64,000 nt of DNA from Nocardioides jensenii JCM 1364 = NBRC 14755 (GTDB lineage: Bacteria; Actinomycetota; Actinomycetes; Propionibacteriales; Nocardioidaceae): the NCBI RefSeq assembly GCF_001552535.1, contig NZ_BCRJ01000028.1, forward strand, positions 1 to 64,000, in the 5' to 3' direction. The notes under the pieces were generated by a model. The model ran no database searches. It was not told where the DNA came from and saw only the letters and a program-made list of their open reading frames with translations. The first letter of the stretch is position 1. Every line of letters begins with the position of its first letter. Shown piece by piece: positions 34,099 to 61,016 of this stretch. The position numbers and the translations under genes are program-made.

Positions 34099-35096
34099 AC
34101 GAGCACGGCAGATCTGAGTCAGACAAGGACTTCGACGTCAGCGGGGTGGCCCCGGCGGGACCGTTGCACGGTGAGCGGGCCGACGGGTTCAAGAGCGGGT
34201 TCGTCTCCTTCGTGGGTCGGCCCAACGCCGGCAAGTCCACGCTGACCAACGCCCTGGTCGGCTCGAAGGTCGTGATCACCTCCTCCAAGCCGCAGACCAC
34301 ACGCACCGTCGTCCGCGGCATCGTGCACCGCGACGACGCGCAGCTGATCCTGGTCGACACCCCCGGCCTGCACCGGCCCCGCACCCTGCTCGGGGAGCGC
34401 CTCAACGACCTGGTGAAGACCACGTGGGCCGAGGTCGACGTGGTCGCGGTCTGCTTCCCGGCCAACGAGAAGATCGGCCCCGGCGACACGTTCATCGTCA
34501 AGGAGCTGTCGAAGGTCCGGCGCACCGTGAAGGTCGCGATCGCGACCAAGACCGACCTGGCCACCCCGGAGCAGATCGGCGAGCACCTGCTCGCCATCCA
34601 GGCACTCGGCGCGGAGACCGGCACCGAGTGGGCCGAGATCGTGCCGGTGTCGGCGAAGAGCGGTGACCAGGTGCAGCTGCTGGCCGACGTTCTGACCGGC
34701 ATGCTGCCGGAGGGTCCGCCTCTCTACCCGGACGGCGAGCTCTCCGACGCCCCCGAGGAGGCGATCGTCGCCGAGCTGATCCGTGAGGCCGCCCTCGAGG
34801 GTGTGCGTGACGAGCTGCCCCACTCGATCGCGGTCGTCGTCGAGGAGATGGGCCTGCGCGAGGACCGCCCAGAGGACAAGCCGCTGCTCGAGATCCACGC
34901 ATGGCTCTACGTCGAGCGCGACTCGCAGAAGGGCATCGTGATCGGCCACAAGGGGTCGCGGCTCAAGCAGGTCGGCACCGACGCCCGCATGCAGATCCAG
35001 GCGATGCTCGGCACGCCGGTGCACCTCGACCTGCGGGTCAAGGTGGCCAAGGAGTGGCAGCGCGACCCGCGCCAGCTGCGCAAGCTCGGCTTCTGA
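34095..35096 (+). CDS. era: GTPase Era
   Basis: Essential GTPase that binds the 3' end of 16S rRNA and helps 30S assembly. G1 is GRPNAGKSTLTNALVG (near residue 41), G3 DTPGLHRP, G4 TKTDL near 152. The C-terminal KH domain has IVIGHKGSRLKQVGTDARMQ near 278, ending in DPRQLRKLGF. 333 residues, including an extra polar N-terminal 35 residues before the GTPase core. GTG 34095 overlaps the siderophore-interacting protein gene. Normally era follows the cytidine deaminase-like gene; here it is separated from it by about 6.9 kb. Confidence 0.95.
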   Translation: MNEHGRSESDKDFDVSGVAPAGPLHGERADGFKSGFVSFVGRPNAGKSTLTNALVGSKVVITSSKPQTTRTVVRGIVHRDDAQLILVDTPGLHRPRTLLGERLNDLVKTTWAEVDVVAVCFPANEKIGPGDTFIVKELSKVRRTVKVAIATKTDLATPEQIGEHLLAIQALGAETGTEWAEIVPVSAKSGDQVQLLADVLTGMLPEGPPLYPDGELSDAPEEAIVAELIREAALEGVRDELPHSIAVVVEEMGLREDRPEDKPLLEIHAWLYVERDSQKGIVIGHKGSRLKQVGTDARMQIQAMLGTPVHLDLRVKVAKEWQRDPRQLRKLGF

Positions 35097-55464: not shown

Positions 55465-55551
55465 CCGATCCGCGCCCGTTCGTGCTTGCTTCTCCACAGC
55501 CCGTGGCCACCGGCACCCGGACGGCGCGGTCTGCGACGTAGACTCCGCGAC

Positions 55552-57462
55552 GTGGCAGGACGGATCAGGGACGACGACATCGCGGAGGTCCGCGAGAAGG
55601 CCCGCATCGACGAGGTCGTCTCCTCCTACGTCACGCTCCGCAACGCCGGCGGCGGCTCGATGAAGGGTCTGTGCCCCTTCCACGACGAGAAGTCCCCGTC
55701 GTTCCACGTCACCCCCGCGCGGGCGTTCTTCCACTGCTTCGGCTGTCAGGAAGGCGGCGACGTCTTCAGCTTCCTGATGAAGATCGACGGCATCACCTTC
55801 GCCGAGGCAGTCGAGCGGCTGGCGGACAAGTACGGCGTCCAACTGCGACGCGAGGAGGGCGGCGCGCCCACGCCACCCCGCGGCCCGCAGCGCAGCCGGC
55901 TGATCGATGCCCACAAGCAGGCGCAGGCCTACTACGCCGACCAGTTGGCGACTCCCGAGGCCTTGGCGGCACGACAGTTCCTCGACGGTCGCGGGTTCGA
56001 CCAGGACGCCGCGGCGACGTTCGGCGTCGGGTTCGCGCCCCGTGACGGTGAGGCGCTCTTCAAGCACCTGCGCCAGAAGGGCTTCAGCGAGGACGAAGTG
56101 GTCACCGCTGGCCTGATCGGGCGGGGACGCGGTCTCTACGACCGGTTCCGCGGGCGTCTGCTGTGGCCGATCCGCGACGCCTCGGGCGACGTGATCGGCT
56201 TCGGAGCCCGCCGCATCTTCGACGACGACCGCATCGAGGCGAAATACCTCAACACCCCCGAGTCGCCGATCTACAAGAAGTCCCAGGTGCTCTACGGCAT
56301 CGACCTGGCCCGCCGCGAGATCGCACGTTCCTCTCAGGCAGTGGTCGTCGAGGGCTACACCGATGTGATGGCCTGCCACCTGGCCGGCGTCGGCACCGCC
56401 GTGGCCACCTGCGGAACCGCGTTCGGCGACGACCACGCGCGGGTGCTGCGGCGCTTCCTGCACGACCACGAGGAGTTCCGCGGTGAGGTGATCTTCACCT
56501 TCGACGGGGACTCGGCCGGGCAGAAGGCGGCGCTGCGGGCCTTCGGCGGCGATCAGAACTTCGTGTCCCAGACCTATGTCGCGATCGAGCCCGACGGTCT
56601 CGACCCGTGCGACCTGCGGATCAAGAAGGGTGACGAGGCGGTCCGTGAGCTGGTCTCCGGACGGGTGCCGCTCTATCGCTTCGTGCTCAGCAACGTGCTC
56701 TCCCGCTATGACCTCGACCGGGCCGACGGACGGGTCGACGCGCTCCGCGAGGCCGCCGTCCTGGTCAGCAGCGTGCGCGACAAGTCCAAGGTCGACGCCT
56801 TCGCCCGTGAGATCGCCTCCTCGATCGGGGTCGACGTCGACGAGGCCCGCACCGAGGTACGCCGGGCCGCGAGCCGGCAGTCCCGTGCGCCGCGCCAGAC
56901 CCCCGGTGGCGCCCTTGGCCGGGCCTCCGGTGCCACTGCGCGTCCGCAGGAGCCGACCGCTCCCGAGCAGCCCGCGAAGCCGCCCCTGCCGCACCTGCGC
57001 GACCCACGCTTCGCGATCGAGCGCGAGACGCTCAAGCTGGTGCTGCACCACCCCGAGGTCGTCGTACGCGCGGCCCGCGACGTCGGCCCCGACGACTTCA
57101 CCCACCCGACCTACCGCGAGGTGTGGGCGGCGATCCGCGCGGGTGGCGGCCCCGAGAGCGCCAAGGCCGGCTGGGCCGCGGGACTGCGCGACCACGCCAC
57201 CGACCCGGCTGTCTCATCCGCGCTCACCGAGCTCAGCGTCGAGCCCCTGCTGTCGAAGAAGGAGCCCGACCTGGCCTACGTGCACGCCCACGTCTACCGT
57301 CTCCGCGAGCTGACCGCGCTGCGCGCGATCGCCGACGTCAAGAGCAAGCTGCAGCGCACCAACCCCGTTGACGACGCAGGCGGCTACAACGACATGTTCG
57401 GAGAGTTGATGAAGCTCGAGCAGCACCGCCGGGCCATGCGTGAGGCGGCGATGGGCACGTGA
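55552..57462 (+). CDS. dnaG: DNA primase
   Basis: Synthesises RNA primers at the replication fork. The zinc-binding domain has CPFHDEKSPSFHVTPARAFF (Cys41, His44) and HCFGCQEGGDVFSF (Cys62, Cys65). The RNA polymerase core includes VIGFGARRIF and LNTPESPIYKKSQVLYG near residues 220-245. The Toprim motif is VVVEGYTDVMACHLAG near 264, followed by FTFDGDSAGQKAALRAF near 315. The C-terminal helicase-binding domain is reached through a Pro/Ala linker. 636 residues from GTG 55552. The stop overlaps the next gene by four bases. Confidence 0.95.
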   Translation: MAGRIRDDDIAEVREKARIDEVVSSYVTLRNAGGGSMKGLCPFHDEKSPSFHVTPARAFFHCFGCQEGGDVFSFLMKIDGITFAEAVERLADKYGVQLRREEGGAPTPPRGPQRSRLIDAHKQAQAYYADQLATPEALAARQFLDGRGFDQDAAATFGVGFAPRDGEALFKHLRQKGFSEDEVVTAGLIGRGRGLYDRFRGRLLWPIRDASGDVIGFGARRIFDDDRIEAKYLNTPESPIYKKSQVLYGIDLARREIARSSQAVVVEGYTDVMACHLAGVGTAVATCGTAFGDDHARVLRRFLHDHEEFRGEVIFTFDGDSAGQKAALRAFGGDQNFVSQTYVAIEPDGLDPCDLRIKKGDEAVRELVSGRVPLYRFVLSNVLSRYDLDRADGRVDALREAAVLVSSVRDKSKVDAFAREIASSIGVDVDEARTEVRRAASRQSRAPRQTPGGALGRASGATARPQEPTAPEQPAKPPLPHLRDPRFAIERETLKLVLHHPEVVVRAARDVGPDDFTHPTYREVWAAIRAGGGPESAKAGWAAGLRDHATDPAVSSALTELSVEPLLSKKEPDLAYVHAHVYRLRELTALRAIADVKSKLQRTNPVDDAGGYNDMFGELMKLEQHRRAMREAAMGT

Positions 57463-57998
57463 GGCTCTTCGGTGCACCGCTGCCTGCGGAGGTCCTCGCT
57501 GTCGAGCTGGCGGCGGGGGAGAAGGCGTTGGCGGGCGCTGTCGGCAAGGCCGACGGGGCCGACGCTGACGCCGAGGGCAGCACGGGTGACGTGGTGCTGG
57601 TCGGCACCCGGGACGCGCTCCATGTCGGCAGTCGACGCATCCCGTGGGAGAGCGTCGAGAAGGCCGACTGGTCGCAGGAAGACTCACGACTGACCGTCAC
57701 CGAGGTCGGCAGCTGGGGCGAGGTCCGCCCGGTGCACACCGTTCTGCTCGAGGAGCCGGGGCGACTGCTCGAGCTGGTCCGTGAACGGGTCACCGCGAGC
57801 GTCGTACTCCAGCGGCACGTGCCGATCCGAGGCCGGCGCGGAGTGTTCGTGATCGCGCGTCGGGCGCCACGCGGTGACCAGCCGGTGCAGTGGGTCTACG
57901 AGTTCGAGGAGGGCGTCGATCCCGACGACCCCGAGGTGCGGAGACGGGCCGCGTTGGCCCTCGAAGCGGTGCGCGACGAGGTCGGTCTCGACCTGTGA
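57459..57998 (+). CDS. Conserved hypothetical protein downstream of dnaG
   Basis: 179-residue soluble protein, not recognised by motif. It opens MRLFGAPLPAEVLAVELAAG, continues with a PH-like beta-rich part (GTRDALHVGSRRIPWESVEK; DWSQEDSRLTVTEVGSWGEV) and ends with FVIARRAPRGDQPVQWVYEF and a helix. The W-E-S-V-x-x-A-x-W segment after short strands is reminiscent of bacterial PH-like domains. GTG 57459 overlaps the dnaG stop, so it is translationally coupled to the primase. Role unknown. Confidence 0.75.
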   Translation: MRLFGAPLPAEVLAVELAAGEKALAGAVGKADGADADAEGSTGDVVLVGTRDALHVGSRRIPWESVEKADWSQEDSRLTVTEVGSWGEVRPVHTVLLEEPGRLLELVRERVTASVVLQRHVPIRGRRGVFVIARRAPRGDQPVQWVYEFEEGVDPDDPEVRRRAALALEAVRDEVGLDL

Positions 57999-58067: not shown

Positions 58068-58140
58068 TCCCCTGTAGCTCAACTGGCAGAGCATTCGGCT
58101 GTTAACCGGAGGGTTGTTGGTTCGAGTCCAACCGGGGGAG
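58068..58140 (+). tRNA. tRNA-Asn (anticodon GTT)
   Basis: Full cloverleaf: acceptor tcccctg / cgggggA with one wobble pair, D-arm tagctcaactggcagagca, anticodon arm ttcgg-ctgttaa-ccgga with GTT at 58101-58103, and T-arm gttgg-ttcgagt-ccaac. The discriminator base is G. A CCA end is not encoded (the following bases are ca). A tattct at 58044-58049 could be the -10 element. Its 3' end is adjacent to excisionase and integrase sequences, a classic integration target. Confidence 0.95.
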
Positions 58141-58146
58141 CAGAAG

Positions 58147-58184
58147 AACCCCGTCTGACCTGTGTGAACAGGTCAGACGGGGTT
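58147..58184 (+). terminator. Intrinsic terminator after tRNA-Asn
   Basis: Perfect 16-bp stem aaccccgtctgacctg (58147-58162) with caggtcagacggggtt (58169-58184) and a six-base loop, followed by cgttcgttt. It begins seven bases after the tRNA 3' end. Confidence 0.9.
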
Positions 58185-58293
58185 CGTTCGTTTCACGTGT
58201 TGACGGCCTTGTTCACACTTTTGGTCCACTTTTGGTGGCCGGGCCACCCCTCACACGCCGCATTCGTGGGTCTCGCACGCGTACCTCCCGGGC

Positions 58294-58653
58294 ATGGCTA
58301 CCAACGTTACCGAAGCGTCCATGCTCACCACCGACCCGGCCGACTACCGGCTGCTCACCTCCGACGAGGCGTCAGCGGTCCTTGCAGTCCCGGTCGCCAC
58401 CTTGCGCACGTGGCGATCCCGTCGCCGCGGCTACGGTCCGCCGGCGGTCCACCTCGGCGGCAACATCCGCTACCGCCCCCAGGACCTGTTGGTCTGGATC
58501 GATGCGCACACCGAGAACCTCGCCGGCGACCTACCGGACGAGATCGAAGCGCACCAACCCAGAACCAACCCGTCCCCTGAACATCCCCTGACGAGACAGT
58601 GGCGACCACGCCCTGAGCCTCGCCCCTCCGAGAGCAACCAGATCCGCGCCTGA
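58294..58653 (+). CDS. AlpA/excisionase-like helix-turn-helix protein
   Basis: Small DNA-binding protein typical of integrative elements. The MerR-like winged helix is YRLLTSDEASAVLAVPVATL and RTWRSRRRGYGPPAVHLGGN, followed by IRYRPQDLLVWIDAHTENLA, the standard pattern of actinophage and integrative-element excisionases. The tail is basic and proline-rich. 119 residues from ATG 58294 (ATG 58321 is possible). It lies between tRNA-Asn and an integrase fragment in the same direction, as in pSAM2-like elements. Confidence 0.82.
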   Translation: MATNVTEASMLTTDPADYRLLTSDEASAVLAVPVATLRTWRSRRRGYGPPAVHLGGNIRYRPQDLLVWIDAHTENLAGDLPDEIEAHQPRTNPSPEHPLTRQWRPRPEPRPSESNQIRA

Positions 58654-58705
58654 CGCGCCGACTGTGAAGTCGCCGCCGGGCGCTGGGCAGAATAGAGAAC
58701 TTCAG

Positions 58706-59270
58706 ATGTCCCGCGAACCACTCCAACCGGCTGAGATCGGCGAACGTATCGAACTTGAGACTGGGGGACCGGTCGATGCCCGTACGTTGGTCAAGGACGC
58801 GGTCGAGATCTACCTTGACCAGCGCATGGAGGATGCCCGCACCGGGATCGGCCGGGCCAGCACCCGGTCGATCAAGCAGTACGGTTCCCTGGCCCGCAAC
58901 TGGATCGTTCCGAATCTCGGTAATCTCCAGGTTCGCCATCTCACCTCGGGCCGCCTGGATCGCTACTTCCGTATCGAAGTGACACCTACCCGCTACTCGG
59001 ACGTTCGCAAAACCCTGCACGCGTTCGTGGAGTGGCTTGTTGTCCAAGGTGCCCTCACCCGAGACCCGCTGGCACCACTGCCGAGCTACCAACGCCGCAA
59101 CATCGGCCGGCGGTCCAAAGACCGCGAGATCACCGCGGCACACATCAGCGCCGTGCTCACCGCGATCGAACGAATGGATCGGGTCACGACCCTCAGGGCC
59201 GACACCATCGACTGTCTACCGCGATCTCGTGTTGTTCATCGTCGGCACCGCCTGTCGACCAGGAGAGGCC
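58706..59270 (+). pseudogene. Tyrosine recombinase (integrase) fragment, frameshifted and truncated
   Basis: ATG 58706 opens a core-binding-domain sequence: DAVEIYLDQRMEDARTGIGR, STRSIKQYGSLARNWIVPNL and HLTSGRLDRYF, the N-terminal half of a phage-type integrase. Near 59205-59217 the frame shifts; the catalytic start YRDLVLFIVGTACRPGEA (with the first catalytic Arg) continues in the +1 frame at 59217-59270 and then ends in non-integrase sequence. The C-terminal H-x-x-R and Tyr boxes are absent. The enzyme is therefore dead. Confidence 0.82.
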
Positions 59271-59377
59271 CCGCGCGGTCGGCCAGACCCCGCTGTACCA
59301 AGGAGAGCCGCCAGGCCAGTGCTGCCGCGTCACGCAGCCCCAGCACACAGGCCCTGTCCGAGGAACGGAGGCATCAG

Positions 59378-59984
59378 GTGAGCAGCGTCGACCGCCCTGC
59401 TGGACGAATCGTGGACGGGTACGCGCCCGTTGTCGCAGGGCTGGAGAACGACATCGACGAGGTCGAGGACAGCTTCTTCGGTGCGGCCCGCGTGGATTCT
59501 TCCTTGTCAGAGCGGACCTATTGGTTGCTCGCGCAAGTGATCGAGCTCCAGCGCGCGATCGGGCCGCTCCCCGGGATCCTTGAAGGCTTGTTGCGCGGCG
59601 CCGATCGGTATGGCACTGGCGACGAGGTGCAGAACCGACTGCGCAACGTGCTCGACCACACCATCCGGGCAACCGAGCGGGTCGACTCATGTCGGGCACT
59701 GCTCGGCAACGCCCTCACCGTCCACTCGACGCTGGTGTCGCTTGAGCAGAACGAGGCGATGCGTCGCATGTCCAGCGCGATCCTGGCGCAGGGGGGAGGT
59801 CAAGCGGATCTCTTCCTGGGCAGCGATCCTGTTAACCCCGACGCTTGTCGCCTCGATCTACGGGATGAACTTCGACCACATGCCTGAGCTGCGCTGGGCC
59901 TGGGGCTATCCGTTCGCCATGGTGCTGATGTTCGGCTTGGGTCTGGGGCTCTGGGGCGCCTTCAAGTTCAAGCACTGGCTTTGA
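59378..59984 (+). pseudogene. CorA-type Mg2+/divalent cation transporter, N-truncated and frameshifted
   Basis: The segment RIVDGYAPVVAGLENDIDEV then EDSFFGAARVDSS, YWLLAQVIELQRAIGPLPGI and RATERVDSCRALLGNALTVH is the long helix of CorA. After a frameshift at the G6 run 59791-59796 the +1 frame continues RISSWAAILLTPTLVASIYG-MNFDHMPELRWAWGYP with the signature GMN and the second membrane helix, ending in KFKHWL. The first ~130-150 residues (cytoplasmic alpha/beta domain) are missing and replaced by integrase remains. Removing one G would restore the frame across the shift but not the lost N-terminus. Confidence 0.82.
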
Positions 59985-60963
59985 TGGCGGTGGCCATGTG
60001 TGATCCCGTCCCTTCCCACGAGAACAGTGCCTGCGCGTTGGTAGCGACCAGGTCTCGCCATGGGCCGTGGATGTCGGAGCGCCAGTGCGCATCGAGGGCA
60101 TCGACCTGCAGGGCGACCACCGATGGCGGGGTCCAGCAGAAGTCACTGCCATAGAGCAGATGGTCGCTACCGGCGCGACCGATGAGCGTCTCCGCGTGAG
60201 TCGGAACCGGCATACCGGCCATGTCGAACCAGAGCCGACCCAGCGCATCGTCGAGCCCGTCCGCGTCGTCCGGACCGATGCCGAACGCTGCGAAGAGCTT
60301 GAGCCGGTCGATCATCAACGGCAGGAAGGCACCGCAGTGCGAGGCGATCACCCGCACGTTGGGATGCCGGGCGAGCGTGCCGTCGACCATCATGCCGACC
60401 ATCGACCGGGTGGTCTCGACCAGGAACTCCAGCATCGGCCGGGGCAGGACGAGCGCGGTCTGCTCATGGCCGGGCGGTGAGGTCGGGTGCACGAACAACA
60501 CCGCCCCACGTCGGTCGAGCTCCGCGAAGAACGGCTCGTAGGACGGGTCGCTGAGATACGTGCCGTGCGTGTTCGTCTCGACCACGATGCCTGCCGCACC
60601 GAGCTCGTCGAGGCCACGGGTCCCCTCGGCCAGTGATGCCTCGACGGCGGGCAGTGGCACCGACGCGAAGAACCGGAATCGGTCCGGCCACTGGGCGCAC
60701 ACCTCGGCGGCGAAGTCGTTGACCCGCCTGGCCAGTTGAACGGCGGCCGCGTCGTCGCCGAAGTGCACCCCGGGTGAGGAGATCGAGAGCACCGCCTGGT
60801 CGATCCCATGCTCGTCCATCAGCCGCAGGTGGTCCTCGGGAGTCCAACTGGGCCACCCCGGCATGCCGTCGGGCCGTTCGTGCCCGGCGCGGGTCGCCTC
60901 CTCGGCGTACCAGGGTGTGACGAAGTGTGCGTGCACGTCGACCAGTGGGGTTTCTTCGGTCAT
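59968..60963 (-). CDS. Amidohydrolase-2 family protein (ACMSD/gamma-resorcylate decarboxylase-like)
   Basis: Metal-dependent TIM-barrel enzyme. Metal-ligand motif LVDVHAHFVTPWYAEE near residue 8 (HxH), the middle histidine in FVHPTSPPG near 165, ASHCGAFLPLMIDRLKLFAA near 215 and the late Asp in LLYGSDFCWTPP near 278 match the ACMSD-type decarboxylase/hydrolase subfamily. 331 residues from ATG 60963, chosen because the region back to 61047 overlaps the ligase gene end. Part of the minus-strand cluster with an extradiol dioxygenase and a ligase, so a role in breakdown of an aromatic ring or its cleavage product is likely. Confidence 0.83.
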   Translation of the reverse strand: MTEETPLVDVHAHFVTPWYAEEATRAGHERPDGMPGWPSWTPEDHLRLMDEHGIDQAVLSISSPGVHFGDDAAAVQLARRVNDFAAEVCAQWPDRFRFFASVPLPAVEASLAEGTRGLDELGAAGIVVETNTHGTYLSDPSYEPFFAELDRRGAVLFVHPTSPPGHEQTALVLPRPMLEFLVETTRSMVGMMVDGTLARHPNVRVIASHCGAFLPLMIDRLKLFAAFGIGPDDADGLDDALGRLWFDMAGMPVPTHAETLIGRAGSDHLLYGSDFCWTPPSVVALQVDALDAHWRSDIHGPWRDLVATNAQALFSWEGTGSHMATAIKASA

Positions 60964-61016
60964 CTCTGGGGTCTCCTTGCTTCGTGTGTGTGGTCTCGAC
61001 GGCCGCTCGCTGGCGC

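What the first reader, a model, noticed from the sequence alone, without database searches (positions are those of the whole stretch)
58068..59984. Collapsed integrative element at tRNA-Asn with an integrase/corA junction
tRNA-Asn is followed in the same direction by an AlpA-like excisionase gene, an integrase that has lost its C-terminal catalytic half and is frameshifted, and then the 3' two thirds of corA without its N-terminal domain. The simplest reading is that an element integrated at this tRNA and a large deletion then fused its integrase gene to a corA gene, removing everything between. The excisionase gene itself appears intact.
Basis: partly seen in the sequence, partly recalled or inferred. 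Interest (0 to 1): 0.65.

Follow-up and report, generated by a model that had tools for sequence, protein, structure and literature searches.

The report
Decayed mobile-element end at tRNA-Asn
Beside an asparagine tRNA gene this actinobacterium keeps the rotting left end of a mobile DNA element, with an intact excision-helper gene, a broken integrase and scraps of two unrelated genes behind it, while a bacterium of another genus still has an intact integrase at the same site; this is ordinary decay, nicely preserved.

Summary
The observation largely holds: tRNA-Asn is followed in the same direction by an intact AlpA-like gene, a broken integrase and a 3' piece of corA. It is best read as the decayed left end of a tRNA-Asn integrative element. 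G860, another genus of the same family, has the same dnaG - hypothetical - tRNA-Asn - AlpA - integrase order with a full-length 413-aa integrase, and two further exact copies of the 35-bp tRNA 3' end, 292.9 and 318.7 kb downstream; conjugation genes lie in between. The single-deletion idea fails. The integrase has an inner deletion of about 140 nt, a frameshift, and ends near 59272. Then comes, antisense, a ~120-nt scrap of an FAD-dependent aromatic hydroxylase, and only then corA, itself frameshifted twice. No second tRNA end is on the 101-kb contig, and searches of the genome did not find the lost integrase or corA parts. A truncated relative of a G860 element gene survives about 9 kb downstream. 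The order tRNA - AlpA - int differs from 23 of 23 genus loci with a tRNA in reach but matches G860 and resembles ICEKp1.

The parts
58068..58141 (+). tRNA-Asn (GTT), target site; its last 35 bases (58107-58141) equal the repeated core in G860
   Evidence: ARAGORN; core copies
58146..58185 (+). terminator-like hairpin behind the tRNA
   Evidence: fold and inverted repeat; also present at empty and occupied tRNAs, so not diagnostic
58216..58236 (+). tandem CACTTTTGGT repeat, possible arm-type recombinase site (inferred)
   Evidence: only such place in C28; same spacing behind two of three G860 cores; 0 single ACTTTTGGT in 779,553 background bases
58294..58653 (+). alpA-like excisionase (directionality factor) gene, intact
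   Evidence: 70.6% identical to G860 AlpA
58706..59272 (+). integrase remnant: inner deletion after about 58728, frameshift near 59169, C-terminal half lost
59272..59392 (-). fragment of FAD-dependent aromatic hydroxylase, frame-broken
59393..59984 (+). 3' part of a second-type corA gene, frameshifted near 59407 and 59792
59968..60966 (-). amidohydrolase gene of a catabolic cluster; its 3' end overlaps the corA remnant by 17 bases; cargo or neighbour not decided
   Evidence: Amidohydro_2 1.5e-25; stop codons

Best explanation
[quoted passage not shown] A tyrosine recombinase joined a 35-bp copy of the tRNA 3' end on the element to the chromosome, leaving the tRNA whole; AlpA was the directionality factor for leaving. 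AlpA and int lie in one direction behind the tRNA with a hairpin between, so they may have been read from the tRNA promoter with attenuation. In this lineage the integrase lost an inner piece and its frame, and its C-terminal half is gone together with the right att site; scraps of an aromatic hydroxylase (antisense) and of a second-type corA now follow. Shown: the anatomy, a full-length homologue at the same site in another genus, absence of a second core on this contig. Inferred: the roles of AlpA and int, conjugation, the order of events, the promoter, and whether corA and the catabolic genes were cargo or neighbours.
For: Same locus with full-length integrase in G860. Three exact 35-bp cores in direct repeat there, 292,905 and 25,806 bases apart, with 315 bp of shared sequence at 88.6% left of the second and third, and TraG/VirD4, TrwC relaxase, a weak TrbL and an NlpC/P60 protein inside. 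Left end of the window 90.3% identical to G860 over 176 nt from the tRNA start. Integrase dN/dS 0.083 over 144 codons, so constraint lasted until late. Relative of a G860 element gene, truncated and frame-broken, at contig 68187-69370. Patchy distribution: close integrase only in G860 and the own genome among 391 genomes of the order.
Against: No right att site or element right end found in C28; only short matches, the best 38 nt at 34256 outside the region. No conjugation gene was identified in C28 here, though not every C28 protein was scanned. The order tRNA - AlpA - int is opposite to 23 of 23 genus integrase loci with a tRNA in reach. Synonymous distances (int 0.89, AlpA 0.45, flanking gene 1.10) do not prove transfer. 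The G860 integrase matches no Pfam family at 0.001 and no solved structure at 0.1, and was not shown to be active.
Confidence: 0.85

Rival explanations
1. One large deletion after integration fused the integrase gene directly to a chromosomal corA gene.
For: Both genes are truncated and lie in the same direction; the far end of the element is missing.
Against: About 120 nt of an antisense hydroxylase gene lie between them; int has an inner deletion and a frameshift, corA two frameshifts.
Confidence: 0.07
2. The mosaic or the frameshifts are errors of the 187-contig draft assembly.
For: Draft genome; one corA frameshift lies in a run of G.
Against: Three independent truncations and an inner deletion cannot come from base errors; the flanks continue on the same contig to the conserved carboxypeptidase and HrpB side.
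Confidence: 0.05
3. The open frame 58664-59887 is a working fused gene.
For: It is an uninterrupted frame of 407 codons.
Against: It crosses an antisense fragment, lacks the integrase catalytic half, and the CorA end is in another frame; no such fusion was reported in the searches made.
Confidence: 0.01

Closest known systems
   Same: Same site, same gene order and direction; 70.6% identical AlpA, 86.1% identical integrase over 144 codons; same hairpin and tandem repeat
   Different: Integrase full length; further 35-bp cores and conjugation genes present; no match to the corA piece within its 367-kb stretch at 1e-10
ICEKp1 of Klebsiella pneumoniae (PMC13023037; abstract and section 20 read)
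   Same: Integrase gene behind tRNA-asn in the same direction, with stem-loops between
   Different: Different phylum; int alone, 161 bp from the tRNA, without an excisionase gene before it; sequence relation not tested here
AlpA-integrase modules of genus relatives at tRNA-Pro, -Met, -Lys
   Same: AlpA gene followed by a tyrosine integrase next to a tRNA 3' end
   Different: Integrase about 22-33% identical in the matched part; convergent with the tRNA in 23 of 23 loci with a tRNA in reach, 29 examined
Actinomycete integrative and conjugative elements (AICEs; PMC3218068, passages read)
   Same: Tyrosine recombinase, directionality factor, insertion in tRNA 3' ends, tandem arrays known
   Different: AICEs move by an FtsK-like translocator (recalled); G860's element has TraG/VirD4 and TrwC proteins

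Membership tests
tRNA-targeting integrative element (tyrosine recombinase type) | Integrase gene of the tyrosine recombinase family beside the tRNA | tested here: met
   Remnant 81% identical to a full-length integrase at the same site, which matches phrog_1 integrase at 2e-31; the window copy itself is broken
tRNA-targeting integrative element (tyrosine recombinase type) | Direct repeat of the tRNA 3' end at both ends (attL, attR) | tested here: not met
   One 35-bp core in C28 up to 8 mismatches; met in G860 with three exact copies. The claim for the window is therefore a remnant, not a complete element
tRNA-targeting integrative element (tyrosine recombinase type) | Directionality factor gene | tested here: met
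   phrog_66 excisionase 6.7e-9; function not tested
Integrative and conjugative element (ICE) | Relaxase and coupling protein | tested here: inconclusive
   TraG/VirD4 and TrwC in the G860 element; none identified in C28, where only selected proteins were scanned
AICE | FtsK-like translocator and replication gene | not tested
   No search for these families was run; the feature is recalled
CorA transporter | N-terminal domain and membrane end in one frame | tested here: not met
   Pfam positions 1-117 missing, the rest in two frames

The most novel reading that the evidence does not exclude
A tRNA-Asn element family of actinobacteria reads its excisionase-integrase pair from the host tRNA promoter through an attenuating hairpin, the logic of ICEKp1 but with the directionality factor first, and can reach 293 kb; in the window only AlpA is kept, perhaps because it now does something for the host.
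Probability: 0.25. Interest if true: 0.5.

Novelty: new member of a known kind. Interest (0 to 1): 0.3.

Why it matters
It preserves a step in the death of an integrative element: the excisionase gene outlasts the integrase, the far end is gone, and scraps of other genes are pasted behind it. The full-length relative in another genus gives att sites, gene order and a testable layout (tRNA promoter, hairpin, alpA, int) for a tRNA-Asn element family that did not turn up in the listings of my two paper searches. For annotation it warns that a long open frame (58664-59887) can run through three unrelated gene scraps.

Tried and rejected
Terminator test: I expected a native terminator behind tRNA-Asn to show that nothing had inserted there. 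A hairpin is present in 30 of 30 tRNA-Asn loci folded, own locus included, but also in 29 of 29 distinct sequences behind occupied tRNA-Pro, -Met and -Lys genes, so it does not discriminate.

Orientation test: the convergent order in 23 of 23 genus integrase loci with a tRNA in reach (29 examined; some are near-identical to each other; my notes wrongly say 22) and in 20 of 20 AlpA loci with a tRNA (29 examined without the own one; largely the same places) first spoke against tRNA-Asn as target. G860 shows that this family has the same-direction order.

Close relatives elsewhere: none for the integrase in GTDB contigs, IMG/VR or plasmids; none for AlpA in GTDB contigs or phages and one distant match in plasmids. 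Integrase: 43 of 196 genus genomes at 1e-3, own one included, best other 30% identity and 1.9e-9; 1 of 396 phylum genomes at 1e-8, the own one; 6 of 391 order genomes at 1e-6, own one included, only G860 close.

G023 as source of the corA piece: it has a degraded corA of the same type about 7 kb from a degraded AlpA-int at tRNA-Pro; identities are 48% (AlpA) and 53% (corA), so this is only noted. Programmed frameshifting in corA, suggested by breaks at a similar place in both copies, was rejected because other relatives read through in one frame there and both copies have further breaks.

Dropped rows: the dnaG and corA-end rows and the row win_N were misframed and not used.

Full report
WHAT IS THERE. 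The window is bases 1-64000 of contig C28 (101,290 bases) in a 5.10-Mb draft of 187 contigs. tRNA-Asn(GTT), 58068-58141, is its only tRNA. Upstream are a dnaG primase gene (55486-57462) and a 179-aa gene without Pfam match (57459-57998). A 119-aa AlpA-like gene follows the tRNA at 58294-58653 (HTH_17 1.9e-7; excisionase family phrog_66 6.7e-9). The ORF 58664-59887 mixes a weak integrase signal with CorA, and the end of CorA is in another frame, 59580-59984.

THE FULL-LENGTH RELATIVE. Searching 391 genomes of the order with the integrase part gave one close match, G860, in another genus of the same family. Its locus has dnaG, a homologue of the 179-aa gene, tRNA-Asn, a 121-aa AlpA and a full-length integrase in one direction. 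The integrase, 413 aa from the corresponding start, matches the phage integrase family phrog_1 at 2e-31 over residues 20-403, although no Pfam family reached 0.001. Where five of seven aligned genus homologues have the first catalytic histidine it has arginine, as have L244 and L245, and the histidine of the LGH motif is asparagine; the arginines and the tyrosine are kept (the motif names are recalled).

LESIONS OF THE INTEGRASE. Against G860 the window gene begins at 58706, lacks about 140 nt after 58728, changes frame near 59169 and loses homology near 59272, just after the first arginine motif. The missing inner piece is near the N-terminus, in this class usually the arm-binding domain (recalled). 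dN/dS is 0.083 over 144 codons: the gene was under constraint for most of its separation from G860. AlpA gives 0.42 over 119 codons and 0.20 over 62 codons of its HTH part.

THE JUNCTION. The next 120 nt fit neither integrase nor CorA. On the minus strand they read DAAHLMPPFLGQGLCAG and, in another frame, LRDAAALAWRLSLVQRGLADRA. The 40-aa read-through scores 2.7e-9 with FAD_binding_3. It is 51-59% identical to hydroxylases in L071, L073, L074 and L075, loci fetched for their amidohydrolase genes, with a weaker match in L072, and 59278-59405 is 73.4% identical in DNA to a Streptomyces plasmid gene annotated as 3-(3-hydroxyphenyl)propionate hydroxylase. So the supposed int/corA fusion is int | antisense hydroxylase scrap | corA.

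CORA. Homology to intact corA starts at about 59393-59400, with frame changes near 59407 and 59792. The closest relative listed is G678, 62%. It is a second type: the genome's full-length CorA on C4 is 37% identical. This type was seen better than 1e-30 in 5 of 36 same-genus relatives (G008, G011, G014, G015, G023) and better than 1e-25 in 81 of 391 genomes of the order, own one included. Relatives also lie on large plasmids of Rhodococcus, Streptomyces and Corynebacterium. No further CorA piece was found in the genome with the Pfam model.

ATTACHMENT SITES. G860 holds three exact copies of the 35-bp tRNA 3' end in direct repeat, 292,905 and 25,806 bases apart. The 315 bp left of the second and third are 88.6% identical, the mark of a shared element right end. 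A second AlpA-int copy with the integrase split over two frames lies in the 25.8-kb unit. The tandem CACTTTTGG repeat follows the core in the window and two of three cores in G860, and occurs nowhere else in C28 or the 367-kb G860 stretch at up to 2 mismatches. In C28 the core occurs once up to 8 mismatches, and the G860 right ends give only short matches, the best 38 nt at 34256, outside the region. The lost int part was not found elsewhere at 1e-8; two other full-length integrases, both on C8, are 28-31% identical.

NEIGHBOURHOOD. Against the nearest relative by the flanking gene, G126 (86%), conserved sequence resumes near 85.4k, with a carboxypeptidase gene at 85317, an HrpB helicase gene at 86113 and tRNA-Met at 88986. 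From tRNA-Asn to HrpB is 28.0 kb here and about 1.8, 5.9, 7.4 and 9.5 kb in the four of 20 fetched relatives in which HrpB was found: a plastic zone. Between lie a catabolic cluster (amidohydrolase, AMP-binding synthetase, glyoxalase/dioxygenase, acyl-CoA dehydrogenase-like protein, PucR regulator), an IS481 transposase, and at 68187-69370 a relative of residues 557-992 of a 1003-aa LysM protein of the G860 element (46.8% over 293 and 53.9% over 102 residues in two frames). The amidohydrolase-synthetase pair also occurs in G074, synthetase 80% identical, in a locus where no corA match was found.

HOW IT WORKED. In tRNA-targeting elements the integrase joins element and tRNA 3' end, and excision usually needs a directionality factor (PMC3218068, passages read). 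The order tRNA - hairpin - alpA - int resembles ICEKp1, where int lies 161 bp behind tRNA-asn, is read from the tRNA promoter, and stem-loops attenuate it (PMC13023037, abstract and section 20 read). There the tRNA's own terminator is displaced by the insertion; here a hairpin sits directly behind the tRNA as in empty sites, which weakens the analogy or makes the hairpin the element's own. For the window this mechanism is inference. All 23 genus integrase loci with a tRNA in reach are convergent instead.

VERDICT. A decayed left end of a known kind of element, of a family whose full-length member was found in another genus.

Noticed in passing
G860:C1 925831-1244666 (loci L191-L193, L206-L221): Array at tRNA-Asn with three exact 35-bp cores, 292.9 and 25.8 kb apart; TrwC relaxase and TraG/VirD4 genes in the large part. 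Possibly a very large conjugative element.
   Followed up: partly
contig C28 68187-69370 (L122), minus strand: Truncated, frame-broken relative of a LysM protein gene of the G860 element.
   Followed up: partly
contig C28 72707-73717 (L122): IS481-type transposase gene inside the 27-kb variable stretch.
   Followed up: no
L120 (G023:C1 1648000-1667000): Degraded AlpA-int at tRNA-Pro and, about 7 kb on, a degraded corA of the same type as in the window.
   Followed up: partly
window 58216-58236: Tandem CACTTTTGGT repeat behind the tRNA, shared with two G860 cores; perhaps recombinase arm sites.
   Followed up: partly
L129-L175, downstream of occupied tRNA-Pro, -Met and -Lys: Occupied tRNAs in the genus also keep a strong terminator-like hairpin directly behind the tRNA (29 of 29 distinct sequences), as if elements carry it with their att site.
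   Followed up: no
G860 integrase (L191:14782-16023, minus): Arginine and asparagine in place of the two usual catalytic histidines; no Pfam match at 0.001.
   Followed up: no
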